21,580 bases of DNA. Origin: a virus. Each line of letters starts with the position of its first letter. The first letter of the stretch is position 1. The position numbers and the translations under genes were made by a program. Of the stretch, positions 809-21,580 are shown in pieces. The stretch covers positions 1 through 21,580 of the IMG/VR virus record IMGVR_UViG_3300042691_041805. The stretch is one strand, 5' to 3'. Below the pieces are notes generated by a model. The model did no database searches. It was not told the origin of the DNA and saw only the letters and a list, made by a program, of their open reading frames with translations.

Positions 809-1270
809 ATGCCAAGCCCAATAACATACGGTATTAATTTTCCATTTAGAGATTCTCCATATGGGTTCTATTTAGATTTGTCAGAAACTTCTGATGAGGA
901 AATTAGAAGTAGTTTAATCCATTTAATTTTAACTAGAAAAGGTTCAAGGTATTTTTTACCTGAATTTGGCACAAGAATTTATGAATACATTTTTAATCCA
1001 TTAGATGGACTTTCTTTTGGGGACATTGAAGCAGATATCAGAACTGCTTGTGAAACTTACATGCCAAATTTATTAATCACGTCTGTTAAGGTTTATGCTG
1101 CGACAGATGAAGAATTTGATAAAGTTGTACTTAGTAATGGGGCAGTTATTAACAATACGTATAATGTACCTGGACAAGGGGTTAGAGACTATACTGCAAA
1201 AGTTAGGATTGATTATAAAATAAAAAATAATACTTTTGCAAGTAGTGATTTTATTATAATTAATATTTAA
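809..1270 (+). CDS. gp25: Baseplate wedge protein, gp25-like (GPW_gp25 family)
   Basis: At 153 residues it is slightly longer than T4 gp25 (132). The family signature is visible: a helix EEIRSSLIHLILTRKGSRYF followed by LPEFGTRIYEYIFNPLD (about residues 30-66), the 'i.liL.T..GeR...PefGs.l...lf.p' pattern of gp25/W-type wedge proteins. In contractile machines this small protein sits at the inner baseplate, bridges the wedge to the sheath, and is normally encoded next to the gp6/J-type protein, as it is here. The C-terminal 40 residues (from VRDYTAKVRIDYKI) add beta strands. The start at ATG 809 lacks a Shine-Dalgarno box. The gene ends in a tandem TAA-TAG, 7 bp before the next gene. The family is also found in type VI secretion and phage-like injection systems, but the partner gene is phage-type. 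Confidence 0.88.
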   Translation: MPSPITYGINFPFRDSPYGFYLDLSETSDEEIRSSLIHLILTRKGSRYFLPEFGTRIYEYIFNPLDGLSFGDIEADIRTACETYMPNLLITSVKVYAATDEEFDKVVLSNGAVINNTYNVPGQGVRDYTAKVRIDYKIKNNTFASSDFIIINI

Positions 1271-1277
1271 TAGAAAT

Positions 1278-3116
1278 ATGGCAAACAAAAAAATATCATA
1301 TACAGTAAAAGATTTTGAAGCAATAAGAACTGAGCTCATCAACTTTACAAAAACTTATTATCCGACAGTAGTTCAAAATTTCAATGACGCTTCAATTTTC
1401 TCAGTTATGATGGATTTGAATGCCGCTGTAACTGATAACCTTTATTATAATATTGATAGAAGTATACAAGAAACTGTATTACAGTACGCTCAACAAAGGT
1501 CTTCTATTTATAATATTGCAAGAACTTATGGTTTAAAAATACCTAATGTTAGACCATCAGTTGCAATACTTGATATTAGTATTACTGTACCTGCATTAGG
1601 TGACCAAGAAGATTTAAGATACTGTGGATTTTTAAGAAGAGGTGCTCAGTTTATTGGTGGTGGTCAAGTTTTTGAAACTGTGGATGATGTTGATTTTTCA
1701 TCACCATTTAATTCATTAGGTAATCCTAATAGATTAAAAATACCAAATTTTGACAATAATAATAATTTAATAAATTATACCATTACCAAAAGAGAAACTG
1801 TTGTTAATGGAACAACTAAAGTTTTTAGACGTTCAATTAACGCTCAAGACGCTAGACCTTTTTTAGAGGTATTTTTACCTGAACAAAATGTTTTGTCAAT
1901 TACAAGTGTGATTTTAAAAGATGGTACAAATTATAATGGTATACCTTCTTACGATGATTTTTTAACTCCTGTAAATAAATGGTATGAGGTAAATTCTTTA
2001 GCTGAAGACAGGGTATTCATTGAAGACCCAACTAAAGTTTCTGACAAACCTGGTGTTAAAGTTGGAAGATATATAACAACTAATACAAGATTTGTTTCGG
2101 AATATACTCCATTAGGTTATTGTAAATTAACATTTGGTGGAGGTAATACTTCGGCGGATGATTTATTGAGAGATTTTGCGAGAAATGGAACTCCATTGGA
2201 CTTATCAAGATACCAAAATAATTTTGGATTAGGGTCAACATTAAAATCAAATTCAACACTATTCATACAATATAGAATTGGTGGAGGTTCAGGAAGTAAT
2301 TTGGGTGTAAATGTTATTAATCAAATAGGTACAGTTACGTTTTTTGTGAATGGTCCTAGTCAAACAATCAATACAAATGTAGTTAATTCTTTGTCATGTA
2401 ATAATGTGACAGCAGCAATTGGAGGGTCTGACGCACCAAGTATTGAAGAGGTTAGAAATTATGTTTCTTTTAATTTCGCGGCACAACAAAGAGCGGTTAC
2501 AATTAATGACTATCAGTCTTTGATTAATACAATGCCATCTAAATTTGGGGCACCAGGTAAAGTTGCAATTGTTGAAGAGGAAAATAAAATTAAAATTAAA
2601 GTATTATCATATGATAGTACAGGAGCTTTAACTAGTTTGGTATCAAATACGATACAACAAAATATTGCAAATTATTTATCAAATTATAGAATGTTAAATG
2701 ATTATATTTCTGTAGAATCTGCTCAAGTAGTTGATTTATCATTTCAAATCAGTGCGGTTTTAGATTCAAGTCAGAATCAAGGTAACGTTATCTCTTCTAT
2801 AGTTGAGATTGTATCAACGTACATGAGTCCTGCTAATATTGAAATGGGTGAGAACGTATATATTTCTGAAATAAAAAGACAAATACAAAGTCTAAATGGG
2901 GTTATAAGTGTTACTGAAGTTTTAGTGTTTAATAAAGTTGGTGGAGAATACTCTTCAAATCAAACATCTATGAGTTACAGTAACTCATCGACAAAACAAA
3001 TCTCGTTAGTTGATGATACATTATTTGCGGAACCAAGTCAAATTTATCAAGTAAGATTCCCAAATAGGGATATAACAGTACAAGTTAAAAACTTTAAAAC
3101 TGTCAATTTCTCGTAA
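1278..3116 (+). CDS. gp6: Baseplate wedge protein, gp6-like (baseplate J family)
   Basis: At 612 residues it is close to T4 gp6 (660). The N-terminus YTVKDFEAIRTELINF, then NFNDASIFSVMMDLNAA and ETVLQYAQQRSSIYNIARTYGL (residues about 8-90), is the conserved start of T4-like gp6 and baseplate J proteins. Other signatures are the QYRIGGG loop at about 331-337 and the block SIEEVRNYVSFNFAAQQRAV ending in TINDYQSLINTMP (about 388-420), typical of the J-like core. gp6 dimers form the inner ring that joins six wedges and partner with gp25 and gp7. The start at ATG 1278 follows the gp25-like gene by 7 bp, with no Shine-Dalgarno motif. It is followed by a palindrome rather than an immediate next gene. 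The assignment is firm at family level. Confidence 0.9.
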   Translation: MANKKISYTVKDFEAIRTELINFTKTYYPTVVQNFNDASIFSVMMDLNAAVTDNLYYNIDRSIQETVLQYAQQRSSIYNIARTYGLKIPNVRPSVAILDISITVPALGDQEDLRYCGFLRRGAQFIGGGQVFETVDDVDFSSPFNSLGNPNRLKIPNFDNNNNLINYTITKRETVVNGTTKVFRRSINAQDARPFLEVFLPEQNVLSITSVILKDGTNYNGIPSYDDFLTPVNKWYEVNSLAEDRVFIEDPTKVSDKPGVKVGRYITTNTRFVSEYTPLGYCKLTFGGGNTSADDLLRDFARNGTPLDLSRYQNNFGLGSTLKSNSTLFIQYRIGGGSGSNLGVNVINQIGTVTFFVNGPSQTINTNVVNSLSCNNVTAAIGGSDAPSIEEVRNYVSFNFAAQQRAVTINDYQSLINTMPSKFGAPGKVAIVEEENKIKIKVLSYDSTGALTSLVSNTIQQNIANYLSNYRMLNDYISVESAQVVDLSFQISAVLDSSQNQGNVISSIVEIVSTYMSPANIEMGENVYISEIKRQIQSLNGVISVTEVLVFNKVGGEYSSNQTSMSYSNSSTKQISLVDDTLFAEPSQIYQVRFPNRDITVQVKNFKTVNFS

Positions 3117-3166: not shown

Positions 3167-6100
3167 ATGAATTCGTCATATAGAGTAAGAACGCAGGTCG
3201 GTGTAGATAAATCAGTTCAAGTTGATTTACAACAAGATTTTGAAACTTTAGAAATTTTGTCTCTTAAACTGTACCAAAGAGACATCTACACTAGAGTCTG
3301 TTCGGACTATGGAGTTATTTGCGGTAGGGTTTTCGCTAATAATGGGTTTGGGGTACCAAATGTAAAAATTTCATTATTTATTCCTTTAAGTGATGAAGAT
3401 TCAAGAAATCCTGAAATTGCAAATATATACCCATTTAGTAATATTTCTAATTTAGATGTTAATGGTTACAGGTATAATTTATTACCTAAAGAAGAATCAC
3501 ATTCAGGTCATGTCCCAACGGGAAGTTTCCCAACAAGAGAAGAAATTTTAAAAGAAAAAAATTATTCTGAGGTATATGATAAGTATTATAAATTTACTGT
3601 AAAAACTAATGATTCTGGTGATTACATGATTTTTGGAGTCCCTGTTGGGTCATTCACAATATTTTTAGATTTAGATTTAAGTGATATTGGGCAATTCTCA
3701 CTAAACCCACAAGATTTGATAAGAATTGGATTGGCGACTGAAGGACAAGTTTCAGGAGTTAAATTTAATGCGTCAACTAACTTAAATAGTTTACCTCAAA
3801 TTATAAGTTTAACAAAACAAGTTGAAGTGTTACCTTTGTGGGGTAATCAGGAAATTTGTCAACCATCTATTACAAGAACAGACTTTGATTTAACTGCTGA
3901 GGCAAATATTGACCTGACGCCTACTGCGGTATTCATGGGTTCAATTATGAGTACTATTGATGAAGCAAAAATTGATAATAATTGTAAGATAGATAAAAAA
4001 GTTGGAGATTTTTGTAGTTTAGTAACAGGACCTGGACAAATATTAGCAATAAGGCAAACAATCAATTATGATACTGATATAAATTCTCAAACATTTGGTT
4101 TCCCTCAATTAGAAAAATATAATTTACAAAATGATGGATATGTCATAGATGAAAACGGAGCTTGGTTACTTGAGGTACCAATGAACTTAGATTATATCTA
4201 TACAAATGAGTTTGGGGAACAAGTAATATCTACTGACCCGACAATTGGGGTACCAACTAAAGGGAAATATCGTTTTAAAGTAAAATGGAATCAATCACCT
4301 TCATTATCTGAACAAACAAGAAGGGCGTATTTTTTAGTACCTAATGTTAAAGAATGGGGATGGGGAGAACCTGGGAATACATATAACGATGATGAGAACC
4401 CAGCATTTTATCCTGAGTATTCTACCAACGACAATTATTTAAGATACCAACAGTCATATGCATTCAGTTTAGATTGGTACGATTACGGAGACCCTACAAC
4501 ATCTGAGGGATTAGAAATGATACAAGATGCGATTAATTGTGAAGATAGATTTTATTTGTTTGAATTTAAAAAAGTTTATACTGTTTCACAATTAATGGAT
4601 AAATACAAAAATGGTAATAGACTAAGATTTATAGGTATAAAAAATATTCTTAATGATGAATGTAGTGCTGAAAATAACAAATATCCTGTAAATGACGCGT
4701 ACAGAGGTAGCAATATAATGTTTTTAATGTTTAGATATTTGTTATCAGTAACAAAACTTTTATTATTCCCACTGATTGTTGTAATGCATGCAATTTCATT
4801 GGTTTTGTATATTGTAAACTTTATATTACAAATAATTGTTTGGTTAATTTACGCTCCAATTTATTATTTTATCGCCGCGGTTGTTGCGGTAGTTAATTTC
4901 TTATCACCTGGAGCTCCGTTAAATAATCCATTAAAAAAGACCCCTGCTGAACTATCAAGAATTATTTGGGACAAATTAAGAATAAAAAAAATACCATTAC
5001 CATTATTATTACAATCTGAAAATGAATGTACTTTTTGTGAATGTAAAGAAGGTGAAGACTCTCAAGAATATACAAACTCAGCGGCTGGAGCACTTCTTTC
5101 TGAATTAGGAAACAGTTGTCATTTCCCATTAAATGATGGTGGTGCGGTGACTCCAACACTTGATATACCTGGAGAACAACAACAAAATTTCCCACAGGTA
5201 ATTGCCGGTTTGGCTAATTCAGGTGGAAATTGTAGTGCAAGAATTCCTACGTCAGCATATAATAGTCCGTGGGCGACAGGTGGTTTAACCTATGATGATG
5301 AGAGAGAATTTTTATTTTCAAACAGTTTAACGTTTGCTGAGAGAATAAATTTATCTAATACAAAACAAAAATATTTTAGGGAATCTACTGCAATTAGAAC
5401 ATATGTTGAACCTGATTTAAACGGTAATCAATTCCACACTGATAATGTATTGGTTACACTGATACAGGGGTGTGATGACATTTATCAGCCAGGAGCTTTA
5501 ATTACATTCCAAGACCCAAGTTTATCTACCGACCCTAATTTTGAATTAGGAATTAATGAAACTGCGGATGGATTATATCAGATATCAGGAACCTCAACAT
5601 CTGCAACGTCGATAACTGTAAGTTATTGTACTTTAGATAATAATACTTTAACAGGTACTAAAGTTTATAATTTACCACTTAAAGACTCTGACGAATACTT
5701 AACATTTGCTAGGTATAGATTTGATATAGAATATTTCCAAGTTGTAACCGCAATTACGTATTCTCAGTTTATTTCTTTAGGTAATGGTTCTGCCAGTGAT
5801 TTAAGTTCTCATGGAACTTTTTATCATAGAATATTTAAAACGCCAATGTCGGTAATGTTCGCTAAAGACACTTCGGGTAATCAATCTCAATTTGAAGCCG
5901 AATTTAAGGGGTCAGTTTTTTGTAATGAAAGTTCATTTTCTGAATTAGCAAATTCAAAAATAGTGATAATGGTTAGAGGTGTAGACCCTTATTCTCCAAA
6001 ATATAAAATTAAATACGATATAAGTCGTATATTAAATCGAGGTTATGGACAAGTTGTAGTTGGTGGAGGTGAAGATGTAATGTTTAAATTAAACATACCT

Positions 6101-8551
6101 GTACAACCAGGAGGAACCTCTACAAGTGATAAAAAAAGGTCAGTACGACACAATCAAATTGTTAATAATAATTCGGCTGACCAATTCGGAGGAAGAATGT
6201 TTTTCCCGTCATGGTTTTTCCAACCTGGAACTGAGTTCCAACCATTTCAGACTGAATTAACTAAATATTATGGTAGTATGGATGCGAGTTTAATTAACGC
6301 ATTTAATGTGATACCATGGGAAACATCGTCTACAAATTTAAATTCACTACAGGTGATTCAAAATTCAGAAGGGTATCTTCTTGTAAGAATGAAAGGTGAG
6401 ACATTACAATGTGAAGAAGATATGCAATCTAGTACTGGTTATGGATGTAACGCGTTCACTGCTCACTATGAATGGGAAGGTGACAATAAATGGGGGTTTC
6501 CACCACAGCCTAATGATAATGCACTTGTTAATGGTGTAGGTGAAAATGGAGGGGCTACTTGGGGTGGGTCAGCATATATGTTACACTATGCTAGTGGAGA
6601 TTTAATGGGTGATTCGGTTGATGGATGTTCTTTTATGTATATGCATTTTGGTGGTGATAATAATGAATGGAAAAAAAGTAGGTCAGTTTATTATTCACCG
6701 TCTTATTTAAATGGGGCTCCTCTTGGAACGTATGGTAATTTTGGTAAAACTTTAATAGATAATCCTACAAATATTGTTTTTCGTTCAGACAGACTACCAA
6801 CATCTACTACCACGACTACCGCTCAACGTAACCATTTTTTATTTTTCCAAAATAGAAATTTCTCGGCATTTAGGATTTCAGACACAGGTGAGGTATATGC
6901 TTCTTCAAGTAGTGTTGATGGTATTGAGTTAGAAACTGCATTATTTTCTGACGGTTCTACTTTAGGGTCGTTGAATGACCAAGTAGTTGCAAGTTTTAGT
7001 GAATGTGCAAGTGCGGTGCCTTTGAAATGTTATAACATTGATAATGATGGAGTTGTTATAATTGATGATTTTCCTGACTGTACTACGGGACCATTAGGGG
7101 TACCGTATTTTCAAAATGGTAAAGGATGTTATTCGTTGGTAACCATACCGATTATTGGTATTCCTTGGGATTTTTTCAGGGTTAATGAATGGTATAAGAG
7201 AACAATAACAAGTTTGTTTTTATGTATGGAAGGTATTCAGTATCACTTCTTTAATAATTGGGTTAGTGGTAACCTATTTATGCCAACATTTTATAGTATT
7301 ACTGAATTAAATGATGACGGGTTTCCTATCAGAAAATATTGTGACGATATTATTGTCTTTCATGAAGACTCAAAAAATTATTATTATAGAAGTAGTCCTT
7401 ATAGGTACGGATATGGTTTTATAGGTGGTAGGACTCGACAAAGAAATGAAATTGCTGGATTTAATAATTACGTAAGGGGAAACTTTAGAAATTTAAAAAC
7501 TCCAACAACAATCATAAATTTAGGACCAATTACTAATTATACCCAAGAATTAGTTCAAGGAGTGGGATACTCGGGATATATTGCGAATACGTTAACACCG
7601 TCAAGTTTCAGAGACATTACCGATATTGTCAATTTTTTTGTGGCATCAAGACAAATTGAAACTGCGTATGAACAGGCCGTAAACACATTTGTTGCAATAA
7701 GTTTGGCTATAGTAAATCCTTCAGTACTTTTATTAGTTGGTGGAGGAGACCCTACCAAAAACTTTTTTGGAGATAGAAACTCAAGAGAGCCGGATAAAAT
7801 AAATGCTGATTTAGCTCAAATGATTTCAATTAATTCGGAATACGGTGTTAAACCTTTTAATCCTGCTGGATACCCATCGGCAAATTCAATAAGAATTATA
7901 CCAATATATAATCTTTTTGATATTAATGTATTGTTAACTGCATTGGCGTCAGGAGGTGTTGCTGCACTCTTAACACCGGCAAAATTCACGATAGGTATTT
8001 TCTTCCAAAGTGATAATGGTAAGAGAGATGCAATTAGTCCAAAAAGAATTGTATGGAATCAAAACGCTCAATTACCATTCCAACCAAATGATGTTACATT
8101 ATATACTCAAGTAAGTCAATCTGTACCATTTTATCAATGGCAGAATGATTATATGACAAGAGCCGAATTTATAGAGTTACCGTTAGGGATTAATATTCCA
8201 TACCCTTTGTTAGGACAAGAAGTTATTTTTGGTTCACATAAGAATGATTGGTACACAGAACCAATAAATAGTAATACCACTACATTCTTCCAAAGAAATA
8301 TACAGTACTTAGACAGGACCGAAAATACTTCAAGATATTTTATGGCGGAATCTAATCAAGCAAAATACATGAAAGGGTTTATTTATAATGTAGATAGTGA
8401 TGGTAATTTAAGAGAAGATTTAGGTAATATAACTGAAGACAAATATACAGTTGGTTCACCTTATCATTTTTATTTTGGATTAAAAAGAGGTAGAACTGCC
8501 GTAGATTTATTCTACATAAAATATGTTGATAGTGAAATTGTAATTGAATAA
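3167..8551 (+). CDS. Giant predicted virion/baseplate protein with internal hydrophobic block (1794 aa)
   Basis: The position between gp6-like and gp7-like genes makes this a virion, probably baseplate-associated, protein; its exact function is not recognised. Residues about 48-170 read as a carboxypeptidase-regulatory-like beta-sandwich: ICGRVF, GVPNVKISL, then DSGDYMIFGVPVGSFTIFLD, with a loop insertion of about 80 residues. Residues about 518-579 are an unbroken hydrophobic block (FPLIVVMHAISLVLYIVNF and onward to VVAVVNFLSP), enough for two or three membrane helices, with a Cys cluster C621-x2-C624-x-C626 soon after. Weaker hydrophobic stretches lie at about 1505-1527 and 1584-1613. A Thr run (STTTTT) near residue 1210 marks a linker. 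No signal peptide is seen. Tape-measure or membrane-contact proteins carry such helices, but the gene position argues against a tape measure. It could be a membrane-penetrating tip or hub component. It is far longer than T4 gp7 (1032). Confidence 0.75.
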   Translation: MNSSYRVRTQVGVDKSVQVDLQQDFETLEILSLKLYQRDIYTRVCSDYGVICGRVFANNGFGVPNVKISLFIPLSDEDSRNPEIANIYPFSNISNLDVNGYRYNLLPKEESHSGHVPTGSFPTREEILKEKNYSEVYDKYYKFTVKTNDSGDYMIFGVPVGSFTIFLDLDLSDIGQFSLNPQDLIRIGLATEGQVSGVKFNASTNLNSLPQIISLTKQVEVLPLWGNQEICQPSITRTDFDLTAEANIDLTPTAVFMGSIMSTIDEAKIDNNCKIDKKVGDFCSLVTGPGQILAIRQTINYDTDINSQTFGFPQLEKYNLQNDGYVIDENGAWLLEVPMNLDYIYTNEFGEQVISTDPTIGVPTKGKYRFKVKWNQSPSLSEQTRRAYFLVPNVKEWGWGEPGNTYNDDENPAFYPEYSTNDNYLRYQQSYAFSLDWYDYGDPTTSEGLEMIQDAINCEDRFYLFEFKKVYTVSQLMDKYKNGNRLRFIGIKNILNDECSAENNKYPVNDAYRGSNIMFLMFRYLLSVTKLLLFPLIVVMHAISLVLYIVNFILQIIVWLIYAPIYYFIAAVVAVVNFLSPGAPLNNPLKKTPAELSRIIWDKLRIKKIPLPLLLQSENECTFCECKEGEDSQEYTNSAAGALLSELGNSCHFPLNDGGAVTPTLDIPGEQQQNFPQVIAGLANSGGNCSARIPTSAYNSPWATGGLTYDDEREFLFSNSLTFAERINLSNTKQKYFRESTAIRTYVEPDLNGNQFHTDNVLVTLIQGCDDIYQPGALITFQDPSLSTDPNFELGINETADGLYQISGTSTSATSITVSYCTLDNNTLTGTKVYNLPLKDSDEYLTFARYRFDIEYFQVVTAITYSQFISLGNGSASDLSSHGTFYHRIFKTPMSVMFAKDTSGNQSQFEAEFKGSVFCNESSFSELANSKIVIMVRGVDPYSPKYKIKYDISRILNRGYGQVVVGGGEDVMFKLNIPVQPGGTSTSDKKRSVRHNQIVNNNSADQFGGRMFFPSWFFQPGTEFQPFQTELTKYYGSMDASLINAFNVIPWETSSTNLNSLQVIQNSEGYLLVRMKGETLQCEEDMQSSTGYGCNAFTAHYEWEGDNKWGFPPQPNDNALVNGVGENGGATWGGSAYMLHYASGDLMGDSVDGCSFMYMHFGGDNNEWKKSRSVYYSPSYLNGAPLGTYGNFGKTLIDNPTNIVFRSDRLPTSTTTTTAQRNHFLFFQNRNFSAFRISDTGEVYASSSSVDGIELETALFSDGSTLGSLNDQVVASFSECASAVPLKCYNIDNDGVVIIDDFPDCTTGPLGVPYFQNGKGCYSLVTIPIIGIPWDFFRVNEWYKRTITSLFLCMEGIQYHFFNNWVSGNLFMPTFYSITELNDDGFPIRKYCDDIIVFHEDSKNYYYRSSPYRYGYGFIGGRTRQRNEIAGFNNYVRGNFRNLKTPTTIINLGPITNYTQELVQGVGYSGYIANTLTPSSFRDITDIVNFFVASRQIETAYEQAVNTFVAISLAIVNPSVLLLVGGGDPTKNFFGDRNSREPDKINADLAQMISINSEYGVKPFNPAGYPSANSIRIIPIYNLFDINVLLTALASGGVAALLTPAKFTIGIFFQSDNGKRDAISPKRIVWNQNAQLPFQPNDVTLYTQVSQSVPFYQWQNDYMTRAEFIELPLGINIPYPLLGQEVIFGSHKNDWYTEPINSNTTTFFQRNIQYLDRTENTSRYFMAESNQAKYMKGFIYNVDSDGNLREDLGNITEDKYTVGSPYHFYFGLKRGRTAVDLFYIKYVDSEIVIE
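4718..4903 (+). other. Coding region for the hydrophobic, candidate membrane-inserting segment
   Basis: This stretch encodes residues 518-579 of the giant protein. Apart from a few polar residues near the start (Arg, Ser, Thr, Lys, His), it is made of Leu, Ile, Val, Phe, Ala, Tyr and Trp. It is followed by a basic run (DKLRIKKIPLP) and the C621/C624/C626 cluster. Such length and hydrophobicity are unusual inside an otherwise soluble beta-rich virion protein. Confidence 0.6.
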
Positions 8552-10331: not shown

Positions 10332-11115
10332 TTTTAAAATAATACAAAATACCAACAATGAATATAAAATAGTATTTCCTGTTGAGACGGATAATACTTA
10401 TTTAGGTTTAGATATGGGTGTTGAGGTCATTCAAAATGAGGTAGTTAACGAAATAATTGGAACACCTAAGAATTATGAAATTACAAGGTTTGAACCTAAA
10501 CCAATTTCCCCATTTGGTGTTTACTCGGGGTCCAGTCTTAATTTTAAATTTAATTTTTATAGTGGACCATTAAATGGATGGGTTTTAAGTTACTCTCCAA
10601 TATTTGAATACCAACAAATTTATTACAATACAAATTCATTTTCAAATTCTTTTTACAAGTTAGATTTTTATGACTCTCGTGAAAAAAAGAACCAAAAAAT
10701 AGTTTTCACAGTAATAATACCTACGCAACAAGGTGAAATAGTTTCAGAACAGATATTTCCAAGTTGGTATGCTAATGATGGGTTTGTTAATTTAAAGATA
10801 CCATATCTAAAATTAGATTATTTAAAAGATAAAGAAGGTTATTTTATTTATTTTTTATCAGACCCGACACTATTAAACATAAATGAATTTTATGCAAGTT
10901 TTAAATTTTTTGATGGGACTAAAGGAAATTTTAAAAGTTTTTTAACAATTAACCCGTCAACATTTACTAATAATAATTTTAATCCTGATGAGTATTCTTT
11001 TTTAAAAGTTGTGTTAAACTATTCGGATTATACATACCAATACATAGATAATAATAATAACCCAATAGGTAGTGACACCGCACCAATAAATCTTTATGAA
11101 TATGTTAACCCATAA
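10318..11115 (+). CDS. Hypothetical structural protein (265 aa)
   Basis: No family is recognised. The start is ATG 10318, inside the end of the preceding gene (14-bp overlap). A GTG two codons later is an alternative. The protein alternates short hydrophobic strands with Asn/Tyr/Phe-rich turns and shows no signal peptide, membrane helix or Cys. This suggests an all-beta virion component. Its last strand region is DYTYQYIDNNNNPIG. The stop overlaps the next start by one base (TAATG), so the two products are probably translated in coupled fashion and may act together. Confidence 0.65.
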   Translation: MTVNNFKIIQNTNNEYKIVFPVETDNTYLGLDMGVEVIQNEVVNEIIGTPKNYEITRFEPKPISPFGVYSGSSLNFKFNFYSGPLNGWVLSYSPIFEYQQIYYNTNSFSNSFYKLDFYDSREKKNQKIVFTVIIPTQQGEIVSEQIFPSWYANDGFVNLKIPYLKLDYLKDKEGYFIYFLSDPTLLNINEFYASFKFFDGTKGNFKSFLTINPSTFTNNNFNPDEYSFLKVVLNYSDYTYQYIDNNNNPIGSDTAPINLYEYVNP

Positions 11116-12215
11116 TGGAAACTCAATATTATAGATATAAAATCTCACCTGAAGTTATTACTGGAGATGTTAGAACAGTTATTGTTGATAACGTTTCTTA
11201 TGGTGTGATATCAGGTATGACTAATATTTTAAGTGGAGGAACTAACGGGGACTCGTTACTAACAGATTTAAGTTTACCAATTCCATTATTTCAAACTGGA
11301 ATTGATTACGGTTATTACGATGGGTTTGATGGTGATTTATTACAAAAGGATGTTGTTACTAATTTTTTATTTACTCAAACCGATGGGTCATATAATGTAG
11401 AATTATTTAACACGTCTGAGATGGTACAAAAAAAATTACTATCAGAATCTACATACCAAGTAGATTGGGGTGACGGTTCACCACTACAAACTATTTCTGT
11501 GGTTGCTCCAACACCTGTTTCTCATACCTATCTTTCAGTACCTTATACATATACTATTAAATTAATTCAGAGAAATCCATGGGGTATAATTGAAGTTGGT
11601 AAAAAAATAACTGTTCCATATGAATTAATACCTAATAACAATCCTTACGGAGAAGTTACATTTACCCCTCAGGGAGGGTCATGGTCAGATATTCCAGTTA
11701 GTTATGATTTTATTTTTAATGGGGACGCTGAAAATACAATTTCACAACAAGTAAGTTCAAATTATGTTTCAGTACCATTTTATGTTACGGCAAATACGAA
11801 GTCACAACTTTCAGAACTATCTCTTTACGGACCCCAAAAATATATAGTTAATCAACCTATATATTCAGGTGTGGGAGTAAACTCAATTTATAAAGGTGTT
11901 ATTTTTGGAATTGACCCAAATGGAACATATACCGGGTATACAATTAATAATATTGACTACTATGATTTTAATGATGGTACCACAATTTCTTATGCTCAAA
12001 GTAGTGGATTAACATCTGAAATGTTGATTCAATCGGCAATTACAAAAAATGAATATCTTTTAGGTGTAATTGACCAACCGGAAATTTACTCAAATGTATT
12101 TATTGAAAGAGGAAAAGATTCAGGTATTGAAACAACCCAAAGATTAGGGGAAGTACAAAATATGGGAGACTTGATTAAATACGGATATAAATTCTTCAAA
12201 ATTAAACAATATTAA
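11115..12215 (+). CDS. Structural protein with PKD-like domain (366 aa)
   Basis: Residues about 95-170 look like a PKD/immunoglobulin-like beta domain: YQVDWGDGSP (the W/F-G-D-G turn at 118-121) followed by SHTY at 136-139 and the strand YTYTIKLIQRN. PKD-like domains are common in surface and virion proteins, where they act as spacers or carbohydrate/protein contact modules. The N-terminus (YRYKISPEVITGD) and the C-terminal half (from SLYGPQKYIV, ending GDLIKYGYKFFKIKQY) are not recognised. The start is a 1-bp TAATG overlap, and the next gene follows after 2 bp. No signal peptide or transmembrane segment is seen. It is probably part of the baseplate or a short peripheral fibre; the precise role is unknown. 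Confidence 0.65.
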   Translation: METQYYRYKISPEVITGDVRTVIVDNVSYGVISGMTNILSGGTNGDSLLTDLSLPIPLFQTGIDYGYYDGFDGDLLQKDVVTNFLFTQTDGSYNVELFNTSEMVQKKLLSESTYQVDWGDGSPLQTISVVAPTPVSHTYLSVPYTYTIKLIQRNPWGIIEVGKKITVPYELIPNNNPYGEVTFTPQGGSWSDIPVSYDFIFNGDAENTISQQVSSNYVSVPFYVTANTKSQLSELSLYGPQKYIVNQPIYSGVGVNSIYKGVIFGIDPNGTYTGYTINNIDYYDFNDGTTISYAQSSGLTSEMLIQSAITKNEYLLGVIDQPEIYSNVFIERGKDSGIETTQRLGEVQNMGDLIKYGYKFFKIKQY

Positions 12216-16100: not shown

Positions 16101-16170
16101 TGGGCAAGATTTTTTAAATCAAACGTTTAAATTAAACGTAGGTATAAACTTTTCATTAGCATGTAATTAA
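13126..16170 (+). CDS. Candidate baseplate wedge protein with tail-protein-I-like motif, gp7-equivalent (1014 aa)
   Basis: The middle of the protein carries a helical region: WPLFGQWNLDILTDSF, KIYGRSFDETRVFIDALANM, LAQTLGW, and then NLIMNSAYLFKSKGTRKSIE leading into LLRLIGAPDA at about 444-473. The 'KGT...iE.lLrliG' motif is the hallmark of P2 gpI-type tail proteins, whose T4 counterpart is gp7, the wedge partner of gp6. Length also agrees with T4 gp7 (1032). The N-terminal 300 residues are beta-rich (LTLYGP-like strands) and unassigned. The C-terminus has Cys pairs (VPCETCNATG) and a last domain of about 110 residues (905-1014) that resembles the end of the next protein. Junctions on both sides are TAATG. 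The motif is seen; equivalence to gp7 is inference. Confidence 0.62.
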   Translation: MAVTKYTCPPQTAAGSGTFSNNLVGFQLVQGGGFTQGNFQFTNSITEKSNRTFETGVFSSPISLESMNTTLGQTRAITSNNFEVYPNLDLSEVTSFTLYGPLNKRFSASIEHIVNYFPAALEISQNRPDFTTGITANNIIFDTTENLTEFEIDVESISNPFGIDFTTNSTVNLSSREIKVSDLRNLTVEFSNYILVVNGENYQINNIIPTSSLTAGTLTVFVEGNPFNFNPFTYDYLIIRPNDDVVNKVFNLELDYVDNFILDRSTTPIYTSQFTVPLESDSGNVYNSTDKITWPLFGQWNLDILTDSFTVYLEKLNEIAENFDSYKTNLIARFLITDSLIEFDTPDQKLDKVLKIYGRSFDETRVFIDALANMTSVNYNIGNDIPSQLLKNLAQTLGWNTDISPITNDNFLDSLFTTNPTPLFDGISSNPTPDELNYQYFRNLIMNSAYLFKSKGTRKSIESLLRLIGAPDAIVEFNETVYVADQKINISEFNQRYELIAGGSYIQESVVLNPNSTYSIQGNIYTAFTITNTVIETDTTRTDYPVDEQGFPSMVNASDSYYFQIGAGWFESTPVHRSSEIINYTTSVFTGQNFNVQTELSPFTYGYPYLQRYMDFPYLNFGFGLQKINDNKKSWVSTDTTRINSDAGFNSDYYVGDDRLILNVKNVDLYLNPAQGLLYDVWYVSQTSNFPIPNTGLPDFSSENYLNGFNLGNCNYTAGTSVNGLVYCGFQFDRTVINPKPQKKTFFEFAQDFIKNMINVRDRLFITDGKTGGYPKLQSIFWQYLLSNQAVNIPTNQFSYQNLIEYVEGLGDYWIRLIEQMVPATTIWNTGVKLENSVFHRQKYVYRRQQGCEIIPVPCETCNATGPLFSYDCNYETISCSIYPWDNGLTSVPSFGDVLYQTLNNYLSEIGFTFTDCDLNSLYSIWYVDINVGGNQLIQQSFFEGYGLTGPQAYPTQGQWVVALNNYLPQLNNFNLSYYISNSTLYVQNLDCGQDFLNQTFKLNVGINFSLACN

Positions 16171-18377
16171 TGGCAATAACGTTAAATTATGGATTACAAA
16201 TAACAGGTGATTGTCAGAACAATTCATCAGGTGCGTTAGGGTTAACAATATATGGTGGAACACCTAATTATACAATAACTTGGTTGTCTCCGTCTTTATC
16301 ACCTATTATATTAGCGGGTAGTGCGACAACAATAACTTCATTATCTGGAGGGTCGTATAGTTTTTATGTTAGTGACCAATCAATACCTGTTAACAACACT
16401 AATAATATTAGTTTTTATGTAAGTACGGGATGTTGTGTTTCGATAGATGTACAGGATACAACATGTAATTTACCAAATGGTTCATTAACCGCAACAACCG
16501 CTTACGCCTCTTCTTATGGTACTGCTTATTTATATAAAGAGGGTCAATATATCTCAAGCGCTTTAACAAGTTTTGTAACACAAGATGCTCCTCCACCTCT
16601 ATCACCAGTACCCGGACTTTTAACATCTGCGTATTTTGATGGTCTTTCGGCAGGTACTTATCAAGTTACTCTTTTCGATTATGGAGGATGTCAATGTTCA
16701 AGTCAGACTTGTATAATTAGAAATTCATCTGAATTTGATTTTGGTTTACTTGTCGCAAACGCTTCATCGTGTAATAATGGATATGGTCGACTTACAGTAA
16801 CAGGTAATACTGGAACAGGACCATTCCAATATCAGTGGTCTTCAAACGTACTAAACCCAAGTATTACTGCTAGTACTGTTAGTGGACTATCCGCAGGTAG
16901 TTATAGTGTGATAGTTACAGACTCAACTGGATGTCAAGTAACTAAATCTGCTATAATTAATACTGTACCCCCTTTAGGTTTAAATTATTATACTGCAACA
17001 CCTGCTAGTTGTTTATCTGACGATGGTACAATAACTTTTAATATTTCTGGAGGTACCCCACCTTATTATTATATTTTATCAAACGGGGATTCCGCAATTA
17101 GTTATTCTAATGTTTATACATTTTCAGGACTTGCGGCTAACACATACACTCTCCAATTGGTTGATTTAGCGATTTGTAATTTCTCACAAGATGTACAAGT
17201 ACCCATGGAAGGTAACTTTAATGTGATTTCAGTTGTAACAAATAATGTTACTTGTACTTCATACGGTTCATTATCTATTAATTTAATAGGTAACCCTCCT
17301 TTTACTTATATATTAGAAGACAGTAGTGGCGTGGTTAACACAATTGTTACACAAGTTAATAATTATCAATTTACAAATTTAACCGCTGACACCTATACGT
17401 TAACTATCTCAGATTATTTGGGTAGTTGTGAATATACGGATACGTACACTATTGAGCAATCACCCGATTTTTCAATGGAGATATCGTCAACAGGGACCAC
17501 ATGTAATTCTGAAAATGGTACTATTTTAGTAGATATAATACCTGTTAATTCTACATTATTTAGTTATGAATTACAGGGGATTGAAAATTCAGGTCTTATC
17601 AGTGATACCTCATATTTGTTTAGTGGTCTAAACACTGGTATCTATACTATAATTGTTACCGATGAGAATGGATGTACTCAAACTGATAGTATTATTTTAA
17701 GTAATCAATCACAGGTTGATTTTAATCTATATTCGACAGATTGTGGGTTAGGTTCCGATGGTACAGTTAGTGCGATTATAAATAATGGAACCCCACCATT
17801 TGATTTATATTGGAGTGCTAGTACAATTGAAGGTATATTATCAATAGGTTCACAAACCGGTATTTATTTAACTGGTTTAACGAGTAGTAACTATTATTTA
17901 ACGGTAACCGATTTAAATGGATGCGTGTTGACAAAATCAATATCAGTAACATGTGGTAATTTAGTTAGTTCATCCTATCAAATATTCAATATATGTGAGC
18001 AAGTGTTTACGGAAACCTCAAATCAAAAACGAGGTATACTACAGATGTATAATGAGGGATATCAGGATTTAACTGAGGGGTCTAATTGTATTTTAAATTA
18101 TGCTAATTTTATAACTGAAGTAACAATAGGGTCTCAAACCTACTCAACTTTGTTTTATACGTCATATTCATTGACTGACATACCAACTGATGGGTTATTT
18201 ATTGAATCAATACAATCCGCATTAAATGGTGCTTACGGAGTTGGAAATGTGTCAATAGATTCATCTATGAATATTGTTATAATATCTTCAGATTGTAATT
18301 TGAGTTATGATGTGTTACAAGATTTGGACATAAACATTGATTTAAAAATTGAGTACGATTTAGATTGTCAATCTTAA
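16170..18377 (+). CDS. Tail fibre/adhesin-like protein with seven SprB-like repeats (735 aa)
   Basis: Residues about 8-596 are seven tandem beta modules of roughly 75-95 residues. Each has a Cys and Gly-containing opening (e.g. ASCLSDDGTITFNISGGTPP), a central GxPP[FY] turn and a closing strand pair with GLSAGSYSVIVTDSTGCQV-type sequence. This is the SprB repeat pattern of Bacteroidota gliding adhesins. Here there is no signal peptide and no type IX sorting domain, and the gene sits inside a phage structural operon, so it is a virion protein rather than a host adhesin. A C-terminal domain (about 597-735) lacks repeats and resembles the end of the preceding protein. The start is ATG 16170 (TAATG overlap). 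The stop is a tandem TAA-TAG. A stalk or receptor-contact fibre extending from the baseplate is likely. Confidence 0.8.
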   Translation: MAITLNYGLQITGDCQNNSSGALGLTIYGGTPNYTITWLSPSLSPIILAGSATTITSLSGGSYSFYVSDQSIPVNNTNNISFYVSTGCCVSIDVQDTTCNLPNGSLTATTAYASSYGTAYLYKEGQYISSALTSFVTQDAPPPLSPVPGLLTSAYFDGLSAGTYQVTLFDYGGCQCSSQTCIIRNSSEFDFGLLVANASSCNNGYGRLTVTGNTGTGPFQYQWSSNVLNPSITASTVSGLSAGSYSVIVTDSTGCQVTKSAIINTVPPLGLNYYTATPASCLSDDGTITFNISGGTPPYYYILSNGDSAISYSNVYTFSGLAANTYTLQLVDLAICNFSQDVQVPMEGNFNVISVVTNNVTCTSYGSLSINLIGNPPFTYILEDSSGVVNTIVTQVNNYQFTNLTADTYTLTISDYLGSCEYTDTYTIEQSPDFSMEISSTGTTCNSENGTILVDIIPVNSTLFSYELQGIENSGLISDTSYLFSGLNTGIYTIIVTDENGCTQTDSIILSNQSQVDFNLYSTDCGLGSDGTVSAIINNGTPPFDLYWSASTIEGILSIGSQTGIYLTGLTSSNYYLTVTDLNGCVLTKSISVTCGNLVSSSYQIFNICEQVFTETSNQKRGILQMYNEGYQDLTEGSNCILNYANFITEVTIGSQTYSTLFYTSYSLTDIPTDGLFIESIQSALNGAYGVGNVSIDSSMNIVIISSDCNLSYDVLQDLDINIDLKIEYDLDCQS
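16191..17957 (+). repeat. Seven tandem SprB-like protein repeats
   Basis: By residue, the units fall at about 8-88, 91-185, 190-266, 270-345, 351-430, 434-512 and 517-596. Shared landmarks are an opening Cys, a G-T-[ILV] strand, a GTPPY/GNPPF turn, and a closing GL-x2-G-x-Y-x-[LVI]-x-VTD-x-x-GC. Units 3, 6 and 7 match best; units 1 and 2 are divergent and unit 2 carries an insertion (APPPLSPVPG). At DNA level the units are well diverged, so this is an old array, not recent slippage. Confidence 0.78.
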
Positions 18378-18380
18378 TAG

Positions 18381-19418
18381 ATGTGTTTAATAAATTTAAA
18401 TATTATTACAGGAGAACCTCCCTACACAATTGAGGTTTGTGATTATTTTGGAGTTAATTGTCAAGTAATTGGTTATTATGATTCATACATACCGCCCAAT
18501 TTAATATTAGCAGTTCCTGAACCTTATAGTTTGGCCCCAATTGTTTTAGTTAGAGTTTATGATGCTAATGGTTGTATTAGTCAAAATACATTAACAATGT
18601 TAACACCAACCCCATCAATTACAGTTTCACCCTCTTCTCAAAGTCCGACACCAACGACTACAAATACTGCAACACCAACGATTACACCCTCTTCTCAAAG
18701 TCCGACACCAACACCAACTAATACTCCGACCCCACAAACACCGACACCAACACCAACTAATACTCCTACAATTACCATAACTCCAACTGTAACTAAAACT
18801 AACACACCGACAACCACTTTAACTCCTACTGTCACTCCATCATTATCCCCATTACCACCAACTAAAGCGTTTTTATTTATAGAACCACAATCTGGTAGTA
18901 CAAATATTGGTCAATGGATGTTTGATAATTCACAAACTTTTTATGGATTTACTAATAGTAGTACACCTGCACTTAATCAAAGTAAATTTAATCAAGAGTT
19001 AAATATTTATGTTAATTTCTCAGGATGGACTTCAGGGTTGTTCCCGTCAATTATAAATCAAGATGTTCCGCAAACAACGGGTGGAAATGATTCATTTGGT
19101 AATGCGATTGTTGCTTATAATTTTAAAACGACTAAAGTCCCTAAGGACACTGTTTCGGGTAAAGCGTGGTACACTTGGATGATTCCAACCGGAATGACCA
19201 ATGGATTATACCAAACTAAAATTGATTATAACACATCAAGTCCATCAATGCCTCCTACAACTGTAAACACCGAACCAACAATATACTCTTATTATTTTAC
19301 ATATACTGGAACTACAATACCTCAAACAACATATAGGGTATATACGACTTACCCGTCAACAAATTTTAATTTATTGAATACTTCGGACATATACTTCAAA
19401 GGAAACACAGTAAGTTAA
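18381..19418 (+). CDS. Modular tail-fibre-like protein: SprB-like N-domain, Thr/Pro hinge, variable tip A (345 aa)
   Basis: There are three parts. Residues 1-74 form a small domain with ITGEPPYTIEVCD near the start and VRVYDANGCISQNTLTM at the end. This is the GxPPY turn and closing 'DxNGC' strand of a SprB repeat, so it reads as a single divergent SprB-like module. Residues 75-161 are a Thr/Pro/Ser hinge. Residues 162-345 are a beta-rich domain with no recognised family (KAFLFIEPQSGSTNIGQWMF, then GKAWYTWMIPTGMTNGLYQ, ending IYFKGNTVS). The first two parts recur in the gene starting at 20293; the tip does not. There is no signal peptide. It starts 3 bp after the SprB-repeat gene and ends 12 bp before the next. 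Probable role is a baseplate-attached fibre or decoration whose tip contacts the host surface. Confidence 0.7.
   Translation: MCLINLNIITGEPPYTIEVCDYFGVNCQVIGYYDSYIPPNLILAVPEPYSLAPIVLVRVYDANGCISQNTLTMLTPTPSITVSPSSQSPTPTTTNTATPTITPSSQSPTPTPTNTPTPQTPTPTPTNTPTITITPTVTKTNTPTTTLTPTVTPSLSPLPPTKAFLFIEPQSGSTNIGQWMFDNSQTFYGFTNSSTPALNQSKFNQELNIYVNFSGWTSGLFPSIINQDVPQTTGGNDSFGNAIVAYNFKTTKVPKDTVSGKAWYTWMIPTGMTNGLYQTKIDYNTSSPSMPPTTVNTEPTIYSYYFTYTGTTIPQTTYRVYTTYPSTNFNLLNTSDIYFKGNTVS
18628..18766 (+). repeat. Exact direct repeats in the Thr/Pro hinge region
   Basis: A 28-bp sequence (18628-18655; core CCTCTTCTCAAAGTCCGACA) recurs exactly at 18685-18712, offset 57 bp. A second 26-bp sequence (18702-18727) recurs exactly at 18741-18766, offset 39 bp. 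Both offsets are multiples of three, so recombination or slippage between copies would lengthen or shorten the hinge in frame. They encode SSQSPTP and TPTPTNTP blocks. Confidence 0.9.
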
Positions 19419-19430
19419 TAATTATAGTAT

Positions 19431-20276
19431 ATGTCTACATTTCCATATAAAAACCCAATAAGTTCAGAACAACTAAACGGAGTACAATCTGTTGAAAGGT
19501 CCGAAACATTCGGAACTAATTTTTCTGTACTTGGTGTCGGTGGATACATGGAAGTATTTAATCTTACTGATTTAGTATACACCATACCACCAGCAACATT
19601 TGGACCAATTGAGTTTAGTGGTAATACAATACCGATTCAATTTACAAAAGGTACCGGTGCGGTTTTTTCACCTGATGTGTTAACACTTAATTCTGATAAC
19701 ATATCTTCAGGAAGAAGAAGGCTAGGTATGTTAGCTTATGTTTACGAGGATGACCAAATTTATCAATTCAGAATTGATAACTATGAATCATTATGGACCG
19801 CAGTTACTGCGACAACCGCGGTCACAATCTATGATTTTGGAACACTAATAAATAATACAACCGCCGCGGGACAAAATTTTATAAATGCTTGGACTGCGTC
19901 TACAATTGAAGACGTTAGCGGCGCAACACACTCAAGTGCGGTTTGGAAAAAATTTAGTTCAGGTAGTGGGGGAACCGTTACATCTGGAGTCACAGGTTCA
20001 GGAACTGTGAATTATATTCCTAAATGGACAGGATTAACCTCAATTGGTAATAGTCAAATTCAGGATAATGGGGTTACGGTGTCAATTGGTTCCCCATCAA
20101 GTACTGCTGCAATATTAGAAGTTGCATCTACCTCACAGGGTGTATTGTTCCCAAGAATGACTCAAACACAAAGACTATCAATTTCATCACCGACCTCTGG
20201 ATTAATTGTATATCAAACAGATTTTTCTGATGGTCTTTATATTTATAAAATCAGTGGATGGATACAAATGATTTAA
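19431..20276 (+). CDS. Tail fibre protein with GVLFPRMTxTQR C-terminal module (281 aa)
   Basis: Residues 1-175 form an N-terminal part typical in look of virion-attached fibre bases (FSVLGVGGYMEVFNLTDLVY; GRRRLGMLAYVYEDDQIYQF). A Gly/Ser/Thr linker follows at about 176-190. Then GSGTVNYIPKWTGLTSIGNS and QIQDNGVTVSIG lead into ASTSQGVLFPRMTQTQR (about 232-248) and SGLIVYQTDFSDGLYIYKIS. This last block is the 'GvlfPRmt..qR..is.p..GliiYqtd...l..y....W' module common in Bacteroidota surface proteins and their phage fibres, often ahead of an intramolecular chaperone domain; no such chaperone follows here. The gene starts at ATG 19431 after a 12-bp gap and separates two paralogous hinge-bearing fibre genes. 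A short fibre or receptor-binding role is likely. Confidence 0.72.
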   Translation: MSTFPYKNPISSEQLNGVQSVERSETFGTNFSVLGVGGYMEVFNLTDLVYTIPPATFGPIEFSGNTIPIQFTKGTGAVFSPDVLTLNSDNISSGRRRLGMLAYVYEDDQIYQFRIDNYESLWTAVTATTAVTIYDFGTLINNTTAAGQNFINAWTASTIEDVSGATHSSAVWKKFSSGSGGTVTSGVTGSGTVNYIPKWTGLTSIGNSQIQDNGVTVSIGSPSSTAAILEVASTSQGVLFPRMTQTQRLSISSPTSGLIVYQTDFSDGLYIYKISGWIQMI

Positions 20277-20292
20277 TTAATATTTATCGTTA

Positions 20293-21580
20293 ATGAGTTG
20301 TTATATAACAATATCAAATATAACAGGAGAACCTCCTTATGTGATTACGGTTTGTGATAATTATGGAAATAATTGTTTTTTAGCTGCTTACGAATTATCG
20401 TATGTTCCACCAACAATATATGTAGATATACCATCGGATTGGTCATTATTACCATTTGTTCAAGTTACCGTTGAGAGTTCAGAAGGATGTGAAGAATTAC
20501 AATTTGTACAAACAACGCCCACACCAACACCTTCGAACACACCAACCCCAACTCCCTCCCCATCCGCACCACTTACCTCCCCAACACCTACCCCAAGTAT
20601 TACCCCAAGTATAACTCCAAGTCAATCAGTTCCAATTCCTCCATATTTCCAAGTTCAAAATATTAATGGTTTAAATCCTCAGTCAATAACTTTAAACGCT
20701 AAATTAAATAGTAAATTTACGGTAGATTTTGGAGATGGGACCGCTCCGTTAAATTATTCAATTACTAACCCTTCTTACACTGGCGCTACAAATTTAGTCG
20801 CATTAAGTAAAAGTTATGTACCTTCAGATTATATTACAACAATATATGATTTAAGATATGGGTCACCTACTTTTCCAAATTCCGCTGACGGTTTAAGGGA
20901 TATATATGTGGATAAAATATCTGAAATTTTTGTAAATAATTATACCTTTACCGCGTTTACTAGTTTGGACGGAATATATATTACTAATTCTACTGTAGAC
21001 ACTTTTAAATTTTCACTTACAAGTGCGTTTGACGTTTTTAGTTATCAATATAACTCGGCAACTACTTTTGATTTTGAAATATTAAATCCAACATCAATTA
21101 CTCAATTACAGAATGTTTTTTATAACTATAATAATTTTACCTCGGCGACTATTAATTATTCGGGATATACTACGGCTTCACGACCTACGAGAATGGATAT
21201 TGTTGGAAACTCAAGTTTAACAAATCTTAACTTCGCGCCTCCTCAAACTGGAGGTGTTTTTTACATATATAGTAACGGTCAATTAAGTGATATAAATTTT
21301 TTAACACCACTTAGTTCTAGTACTACAGTTTCAAGAATTGATTTACATGCAAATCGTTTTACAGGATGGACAACAAATTTCCCAACACAAGTTTCCATAA
21401 TTGATATGGAACAACAACAGGGAGGACTTAGCTTAGGTGTTAATTCATTTAAATATTTCTCACCTGATTTGTCAAATAACACAGGGTTAACACAATTGAA
21501 TTTATATACCAATAGTTTAACTAGTATTACTGAAACTATATCAGGTTGCACATCATTGACCGATTTAAGAGTTGATAGAA
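20293..21580 (+). CDS. Modular tail-fibre-like protein: SprB-like N-domain, Thr/Pro hinge, PKD-like and leucine-rich-repeat tip (3'-truncated)
   Basis: The frame is open from ATG 20293 to the right edge (429 codons, incomplete). Residues 1-73 are a paralogue of the N-domain of the gene at 18381: SNITGEPPYVITVCDNYGNN, then YELSYVPP and VTVESSEGC. Residues 74-117 are a Thr/Pro/Ser hinge. From about 118 a beta domain starts, with FTVDFGDGTAP (the FGDG turn of PKD-like folds at 146-149). From about 300 on, Leu/Ile-patterned repeats appear (LTNLNF, RIDLHANRFTGW, TGLTQLNLYTNSLTSI, then CTSLTDLRVDR), consistent with a leucine-rich-repeat solenoid. There is no signal peptide. Leucine-rich repeats are protein/glycan-binding folds, so this tip is a candidate receptor-binding domain. 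It follows the short fibre gene after 16 bp. The LRR class (BspA-like or other) cannot be fixed from the fragment. Confidence 0.72.
   Translation, partial: MSCYITISNITGEPPYVITVCDNYGNNCFLAAYELSYVPPTIYVDIPSDWSLLPFVQVTVESSEGCEELQFVQTTPTPTPSNTPTPTPSPSAPLTSPTPTPSITPSITPSQSVPIPPYFQVQNINGLNPQSITLNAKLNSKFTVDFGDGTAPLNYSITNPSYTGATNLVALSKSYVPSDYITTIYDLRYGSPTFPNSADGLRDIYVDKISEIFVNNYTFTAFTSLDGIYITNSTVDTFKFSLTSAFDVFSYQYNSATTFDFEILNPTSITQLQNVFYNYNNFTSATINYSGYTTASRPTRMDIVGNSSLTNLNFAPPQTGGVFYIYSNGQLSDINFLTPLSSSTTVSRIDLHANRFTGWTTNFPTQVSIIDMEQQQGGLSLGVNSFKYFSPDLSNNTGLTQLNLYTNSLTSITETISGCTSLTDLRVDR
20512..20640 (+). repeat. Thr/Pro/Ser low-complexity hinge region
   Basis: This stretch encodes about 43 residues made almost only of Thr, Pro and Ser (PTPTPSNTPTPTPSPS, later SITPSITPSQS). 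The + strand here is C/A-rich, unlike the T/A-rich surroundings. It is the shorter counterpart of the hinge at about 18603-18863; the two differ in length (about 43 against about 87 residues) and in repeat order. Confidence 0.8.

What the first reader, a model, noticed from the sequence alone, without database searches (positions are those of the whole stretch)
18381..21580. Two neighbouring fibre genes share an N-terminal module and Thr/Pro hinge but carry unrelated tips
The genes at 18381 and 20293 both start with a 73-74-residue domain with the same landmarks: ITGEPPY, VCD-x-[FY]-G-x-NC, Y-x-x-SY-[IV]-PP, and a GC near the end. Both then enter a Thr/Pro hinge at almost the same residue (74-75). 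After the hinge one has an unrecognised beta domain and the other a PKD-like plus leucine-rich-repeat tip. This looks like a dock-hinge-tip design in which the tip is exchanged, possibly a phage strategy for displaying several different binding heads on one type of anchor. A different fibre type sits between them. More copies may lie to the right of the window.
Basis: partly seen in the sequence, partly recalled or inferred. Interest (0 to 1): 0.75.

Follow-up and report, generated by a model that had tools for sequence, protein, structure and literature searches.

The report
Swappable tips on shared phage anchors
A group of uncultured freshwater phages builds its probable tail adhesins from a small shared anchor, a flexible threonine-proline stalk and an interchangeable tip, and DNA comparison shows one tip being passed between phages with the joint at the stalk.

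Summary
The genes at 18381 and 20293 share a ~72-residue N-terminal domain (33/76 identical, E 3e-20), then a Thr/Pro hinge, then unrelated tips. The domain ('dock A') is a phage family without a Pfam or convincing PHROG match: 89 distinct proteins in related loci, N-terminal in all 89; 42 stand alone, 47 go on, 39 of those 47 with a Thr/Pro/Ser-rich hinge. It is predicted as a six-stranded, Ig/FN3-like sandwich; its profile resembles SprB-type repeats of neighbouring genes.

Tip exchange is visible. Between the window phage and L006 the leucine-rich tip matches at 85% of four-fold sites, the dock at 42%, two flanking genes at 55% and 44%; the change lies at the hinge-tip junction. Elsewhere one dock slot is empty or holds a beta-propeller, DUF285 repeats or another tip, and one DUF285 tip sits on two dock subtypes.

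Qualifications: at the window's own docks each tip family is kept in the relatives found; recent exchange there is of alleles. Virion location, dock partner and ligands are inferred. Anchors with swapped tips are a known kind; this is a new variant.

The parts
18381..18596 (+). Dock A, copy 1 (residues 1-72)
   Evidence: Homologous to copy 2, E 3e-20; six strands at pLDDT about 87
18597..18866 (+). Thr/Pro-rich hinge 1 (about 90 residues; 89-111 in orthologues)
   Evidence: a 39-base tandem repeat at 18670-18763
18867..19418 (+). Tip 1, unassigned domain of 183 residues
   Evidence: No Pfam/PHROG hit, no phage-record match; orthologues in relatives
19431..20276 (+). Gene between the two; much longer in relatives (e.g. 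1,974 aa in L024)
20293..20508 (+). Dock A, copy 2 (residues 1-72)
20509..20637 (+). Thr/Pro-rich hinge 2 (38-42 residues in orthologues)
   Evidence: 12-base tandem repeat at 20589-20622
20638..21580 (+). Tip 2, leucine-rich-repeat tip, cut by the window end (complete protein 792 aa in L003)
20640..20700 (+). 5' limit of the stretch shared with L006 (hinge-tip junction); the 3' limit lies beyond the window, near codon 20 of the next gene (L003 about 10490)
16170..18377 (+). 735-aa SprB-repeat protein directly upstream; its repeats resemble dock A by profile
   Evidence: PF13573 E 1.6e-8
809..1270 (+). gp25-like baseplate wedge protein (context)
   Evidence: PF04965 E 7.7e-10; phrog_261 E 3e-15
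1278..3116 (+). gp6/J-like baseplate wedge protein (context)
   Evidence: PF04865 E 4.6e-8; phrog_219 E 1e-19

Best explanation
Dock A is a small Ig/FN3-like anchor, perhaps related to the SprB-type repeats of the neighbouring structural protein, that fixes adhesin subunits to a common site on the tail or baseplate of a clade of large freshwater phages (probably of Bacteroidota). The Thr/Pro hinge is a disordered stalk that spaces and frees the tip. The tip (LRR, unknown domain, DUF285 repeats, beta-propellers and others) contacts the host surface. Because dock and tip are joined only by a repetitive, probably unstructured segment, recombination near the hinge and near the conserved start of the next gene can replace a tip without harming assembly; stand-alone docks are anchors without a tip. 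Shown here: the dock family, its N-terminal place, the hinge, several tip kinds, docks without tips, and one tip transfer with its approximate limits. Inferred: virion location, the dock's partner, hinge disorder, tip-receptor contact, what stand-alone docks do, the host.
For: N-terminal in 89 of 89 distinct proteins; 42 stand-alone, 47 longer, 39 of 47 with hinge. Genes lie in a tail cluster with gp25- and gp6-like wedge proteins, and the related annotated phage immuto has genes named tail fibre and tail spike after its wedge gene. One slot with docks 81-83% identical is a stand-alone 75-aa gene in L125, 474 aa in L077, 1,185 aa in L080. One DUF285 tip (55% over 651 aa) on docks that are 34% identical. 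LRR tip of the window phage against L006: 85% of 284 four-fold sites, versus dock 42% of 24, hinge 55% of 22, tail gene 55% of 236, SprB gene 44% of 271; DNA identity rises at the hinge-tip junction and falls near codon 20 of the next gene.
Against: No evidence here of virion location or binding. Most dock-tip pairs are co-inherited (185 of 188). Docks recombine too: between the closest pair, L003 and L004, four-fold identity is 86% in the tail gene but 43% in dock 1, 50% in tip 1 and 52% in dock 2, so the whole region recombines and the hinge is not its only joint. The dock site count (24) is small. The L080/L105 tip is no closer than their tail proteins (55% v 54%), so it shows a tip on two dock subtypes, not a recent move. 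The dock is modelled less well in the 792-aa protein (block pLDDT 57-79) than in the 345-aa one.
Confidence: 0.6

Rival explanations
1. The region simply recombines often and tips are under selection; dock, hinge and tip are not special units, and tip diversity among docks is old paralogy.
For: 185 of 188 pairs of docks at 50% or more identity share a tip cluster; docks and whole genes also recombine between L003 and L004.
Against: In L003 v L006 the shared stretch runs from the hinge-tip junction to the start of the next gene; docks 81-85% identical occur with and without tips in one slot.
Confidence: 0.2
2. Head decoration: dock A is a capsid-binding Ig-like domain (Hoc-like) and the tips are head fibres that hold particles to surfaces or polymers.
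For: The SprB neighbour hits Hoc-like head-decoration PHROGs (6e-7 and 5.2e-5) and the next hinge gene in L003 hits a head-and-packaging PHROG (1.1e-6); the fold prediction is Ig/FN3-like.
Against: Position behind wedge genes; no dock itself hits a head PHROG: the best of 34 docks is one weak hit to a tail-fibre family (0.0069).
Confidence: 0.15
3. Not virion proteins: the proteins are made for the infected cell's surface or are secreted.
For: SprB repeats are known from bacterial surface adhesins (recalled); relatives carry genes that look like surface-modification enzymes between the two docks (by eye).
Against: Position inside the structural cluster; the conserved N-terminus is a folded domain. 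No signal-peptide prediction was run.
Confidence: 0.05

Closest known systems
Anchor-type receptor-binding proteins of T7/K1F and Klebsiella phages (PMC6872550, passages read)
   Same: Conserved N-terminal anchor, unrelated distal parts moved horizontally
   Different: Anchors are unrelated by name and size (about 140-154 residues in the T7 type); distal parts there are depolymerases; no long Thr/Pro stalk or stand-alone anchor is mentioned in the passages read
Branched tail-spike complexes of Ackermannviridae and CBA120 (PMC11414711, abstract and outline; PMC10253068, passages)
   Same: Several adhesins in one phage with homologous N-terminal domains and different distal parts; tsp genes can be acquired
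   Different: N-domains build a branch; here the dock's partner is unknown, and LRR, DUF285 and propeller tips replace the enzymes
Phage domain mosaicism survey (PMC10684548, passages read)
   Same: Documents near-identical N-termini with non-homologous C-termini in tail fibres, and N-terminal Ig-like domains among recently shuffled ones
   Different: Dock A was not looked for in its data; none of the passages read concerns this family
SprB repeats (PF13573)
   Same: Profile similarity to dock A; a SprB-repeat protein lies next door
   Different: Dock A is single, N-terminal, has three conserved cysteines, and no dock of 34 hits PF13573
Uncultured Caudovirales phage proteins A0A6J5L892, A0A6J5L8W1, A0A6J5L5Q5
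   Same: Relatives by structure and sequence: 334 aa, 46% identity; 92 aa, 31%; 73 aa, 30%, TMt 0.81
   Different: Deposited as uncharacterised proteins

Membership tests
Modular receptor-binding protein (conserved anchor, variable tip) | Conserved N-terminal domain shared by proteins with unrelated distal parts | tested here: met
Modular receptor-binding protein (conserved anchor, variable tip) | Distal part replaced at a conserved anchor | tested here: met
   slot; allele transfer
Modular receptor-binding protein (conserved anchor, variable tip) | Anchor bound to the tail; tip bound to a receptor | not testable with these tools
   Only gene position is available
SprB repeat family PF13573 | Match to the Pfam model | tested here: not met
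   0 of 34 docks at E up to 1
SprB repeat family PF13573 | Profile similarity to SprB-type repeats of the same phages | tested here: met
   hhalign probability 82, score 29.4; 200 column shuffles at most 18.6; reversed 8.1. The ten repeat segments were picked by hand
Ig/FN3-like fold | Structural match to solved Ig/FN3 domains | tested here: inconclusive
   Best Z 6.8 with many tied FN3/Ig rows; Foldseek none at E 0.001 or better
T9SS cargo C-terminal domain | C-terminal position | tested here: not met
   Dock A is N-terminal in 89 of 89, though T9SS complexes are Foldseek's top rows at E 0.03
Hoc-like head decoration | Capsid binding | not testable with these tools
   Neighbours hit head PHROGs; no dock does above 0.0069
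Diversity-generating retroelement target | Reverse transcriptase in the same genome | tested here: inconclusive
   PF00078 in 0 of 26 records; the records are fragments or of unknown completeness
Leucine-rich repeat (tip 2) | Match to LRR models or fold | tested here: met
   Fold matches E about 1e-7; Pfam scores just under cut-off

The most novel reading that the evidence does not exclude
A combinatorial display platform: a phage clade keeps a bank of interchangeable anchors (dock A and other short N-domains before Thr/Pro hinges), fills them with tips drawn from a shared pool, leaves some without a tip, and uses the Thr/Pro-coding repeats and the conserved start of the next dock gene as recombination joints, so that a whole tip cassette is replaced in one event.
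Probability: 0.35. Interest if true: 0.75.

Novelty: new variant of a known kind. Interest (0 to 1): 0.6.

Why it matters
If right, these phages show in natural sequence how adhesins are re-tipped: the joint, the cassette limits and the anchors without tips can all be read. Dock A gives a handle for finding adhesins in uncultured large phages whose fibres otherwise share little, and predicts which part of each gene meets the host.

Tried and rejected
Searches of 50,697 deposited phage records gave no match for three docks, the LRR tip, tip 1 or the 727-aa tail protein; only the wedge gene reached 6 records at 24.6-28.0% identity. GTDB genomes: 77 stretches matched a dock pattern, none was confirmed. 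Dock profile against PDB sequences: 27 rows, mostly zinc fingers aligned over 15-20 positions (best E 2.1e-4, no stretch passing alone), taken as chance. Kre9_KNH, an Ig-like Pfam family, hits 5 of 34 docks (best 3e-4); taken as a fold echo, not followed up. T9SS complexes were Foldseek's top rows (E 0.03), but VIA ties them with FN3 rows. Reverse transcriptase: 0 of 26 records. The 18381 tip could not be modelled. Thr/Pro hinges: 0 in the 3 loci of annotated relatives. Script 54 (segmenting SprB repeats by a pattern) printed nothing.

Literature: 8 searches, listings only except the four papers cited. 'phage' with 'SprB repeat' gave one paper, on bacterial toxins; 'threonine-rich linker' with 'phage' and 'tail' one fungal paper. 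I saw nothing on this dock family in those listings; the library holds open-licence papers only.

Limits of the counts. Tip clusters are single-linkage and join proteins through one shared domain; pairs are not independent. Loci overlap; 169 ORFs became 89 by removing contained sequences. The tool kept the best 80 of 258 tail-protein loci. In one search the flag for tails cut by locus ends flagged none and may have missed some. Of the 42 stand-alone docks at least one (L039:6643) is interrupted by a stop codon and one (L054) is cut at its start. Of the 9 DUF285 proteins counted without dock A, 4 start at a locus edge, so their N-part is unseen; one of the 2 such proteins with the 87-residue tip is the second half of a frameshifted gene. 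The Fisher tests (tip v dock 5.8e-6, v tail gene 1e-13, v SprB gene 1e-24) used counts rebuilt from percentages, and sites are not independent. L006, L007 and L008 are 100% identical, so they are one lineage.
Full report
WHAT IS THERE. The window is a 21,580-base IMG/VR virus fragment with a contractile-tail cluster: gp25-like and gp6/J-like wedge genes, several large unnamed proteins, a 735-aa protein with SprB repeats (PF13573 E 1.6e-8), then the two genes of the finding with a third gene between them. The N-terminal domains are homologous (33/76 identical, E 3e-20). A longer record with the same sequence (L003; 100% over the 3,200 bases compared at 18381-21580) shows that the second protein is 792 aa and is followed by another hinge protein with a different N-domain.

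THE DOCK FAMILY. Searches of the viral collection with each dock and with a six-row alignment found 7, 4 and 10 loci. Nine of 12 records searched whole carry 1-3 copies; the three without are annotated phages that I had reached only through the wedge gene. Six further records all matched. Going through a conserved 727-aa tail protein gave 80 loci, the best of 258. An iterated profile over 128 sequences (127 overlapping loci and the window) found 169 ORFs with a dock, 89 after removing contained copies. In all 89 the dock begins within the first 17 residues of the called ORF (70 of 89 at residue 1). Forty-two have under 35 residues after the dock; 47 go on, and 39 of these have a Thr/Pro/Ser-rich stretch within 25 residues. 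By dock subtype (50% identity): 40 members, 33 stand-alone; 20 members, 1 stand-alone; 9 members, 4 stand-alone; the window's two subtypes, 6 and 5 members, none stand-alone; 9 singletons. In 35 larger records that I chose (77-321 kb), 33 have 1-4 copies. P15, C21, C28 and C66 are invariant over 34 aligned members; at least one more distant member lacks the cysteines (L124:167-403).

FOLD. AlphaFold2 gives residues 1-72 of the 18381 protein six strands at block pLDDT 79-92; in the 792-aa protein the same region reaches only 57-79. Solved-structure matches are FN3/Ig-like domains of many proteins at Z up to 6.8, which is not specific; Foldseek has none at E 0.001 or better. The dock profile resembles ten hand-picked SprB-type repeats of these phages: hhalign probability 82, score 29.4, against at most 18.6 in 200 column shuffles and 8.1 reversed. 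No dock hits PF13573 itself. The predicted-viral-protein library has three matches at E 0.001 or better, all uncharacterised proteins of uncultured phages.

HINGE AND TIPS. The hinge is 89-111 residues in six gene 1 orthologues and 38-42 in five gene 2 orthologues. It is common in these phages: 266 ORFs, 154 distinct N-parts; dock A is the largest N-part cluster (40), and 13 smaller ones were printed, one of them the conserved tail protein. Tips on dock A include the LRR tip, DUF285 repeats (PF03382 E 1e-275 and 3.4e-182), DUF5122 beta-propeller repeats (E 1.7e-71), an NHL-type propeller (E 7.8e-5, over its cut-off), an 87-residue domain on a second dock subtype (18 distinct proteins), and tip 1, unassigned.

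EXCHANGE. Three lines. First, one slot: directly upstream of a second dock, the same dock subtype is a stand-alone 72-75-aa gene in L125, L101, L107, L087 and L109, and has 474 aa in L077 (propeller), 1,185 aa in L080 (propeller, hinge, DUF285) and 218 aa in L062 (another tip). The docks of L077, L080 and L125 are 81-83% identical, their tail proteins 90-92%. Second, one tip on different docks: the DUF285 parts of L105 and L080 are 55% identical over 651 aa, their docks 34% over 61 (their tail proteins 54%, so this is not necessarily recent); the LRR tip also sits on a protein without a detected dock A in L102 (32% over 464-578 aa); DUF285 occurs on 9 further proteins without a detected dock A, 4 of them cut at a locus edge; one, L085, has by eye a SprB-type N-part. 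Third, a transfer at the window's own second gene. Against L006 the LRR tip has 85% identical four-fold sites (284), the dock 42% (24), the hinge 55% (22), the tail gene 55% (236), the SprB gene 44% (271). In 45-base steps DNA identity is 0.60-0.82 through dock and hinge, 0.89 at the junction and 0.98-1.00 just after; it varies between 0.81 and 0.99 along the tip in 150-base steps and falls about codon 20 of the next gene. L005 shows the converse: four-fold identity 60% in the tail gene but 38% in the tip. The allele is in the window/L003 and L004 on one side and in L006-L008 on the other. L006-L008 come from three metagenomes but are 100% identical, so one lineage; an assembly chimera is unlikely, not excluded.

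AGAINST. Most dock-tip pairs are co-inherited: 185 of 188 pairs at 50% or more dock identity share a tip cluster, 25 of 715 below. The window's two docks keep their tip families in what was found. Docks recombine too: L003 against L004 has four-fold identity 86% in the tail gene, 83% in the SprB gene, but 43% in dock 1, 50% in tip 1, 52% in dock 2, 29% in hinge 2 and 85% in tip 2. Head decoration is not excluded. Nothing here shows binding or virion location. The host is a guess from the SprB repeats and the distant match of the wedge gene to Flavobacterium phage immuto (24.6%); the same gene also matches a Microcystis phage record (25.4%) and an uncultured phage (28.0%).

KNOWN OR NEW. Conserved anchors with exchanged tips are well described: T7/K1F and Klebsiella phages (PMC6872550, passages), Ackermannviridae (PMC11414711, abstract and outline), RaK2 and CBA120 (PMC10253068, passages), and a survey of phage mosaicism (PMC10684548, passages). 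What differs here is the anchor family, its frequent stand-alone form, the Thr/Pro stalk at the joint, and the kinds of tip. I rate it a new variant of a known kind.

Noticed in passing
window 19431-20276; L024:13322-19246: The gene between the two docks is 281 aa in the window but a protein with the same start is 1,974 aa in L024; a short variant of a long fibre-like gene.
   Followed up: partly
L004:5816-7954, L005:4628-7978: Relatives carry genes between the two docks that by eye look like sugar or sulfate transfer, SET-domain and kinase genes; the window lacks them.
   Followed up: no
L067:5720-7089 (G027) against L068 (G015): In one of seven records with this gene the reading frame breaks inside the Thr/Pro hinge (114 against 459 aa open frame): an assembly error or slippage in the hinge repeats.
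   Followed up: no
G012:C1:72588-72794 (L039): A second dock copy directly upstream of a complete dock gene is interrupted by a TAG codon.
   Followed up: no
L115:8145-9065 and upstream: A dock with tip 1 has no ATG, GTG or TTG in frame before the dock; an unusual start codon or a sequence error.
   Followed up: no
L003:10429-12528; L033:1732; L039:9027-9860: Other short N-domains precede the same kind of Thr/Pro hinge, e.g. a CC-containing domain and a roughly 60-residue domain; further anchor families are likely.
   Followed up: partly
window 3167-8551: A 1,794-aa protein after the wedge genes with no PHROG match; Pfam was not run on it.
   Followed up: no
window 11115-12215: A 366-aa protein with a VDWGDG motif like the one read as PKD in the LRR gene; no PKD model hits it.
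   Followed up: no
L003:14743-15336: A RuvC-like resolvase gene follows the conserved 727-aa tail protein (phrog_827 E 1.3e-5).
   Followed up: no
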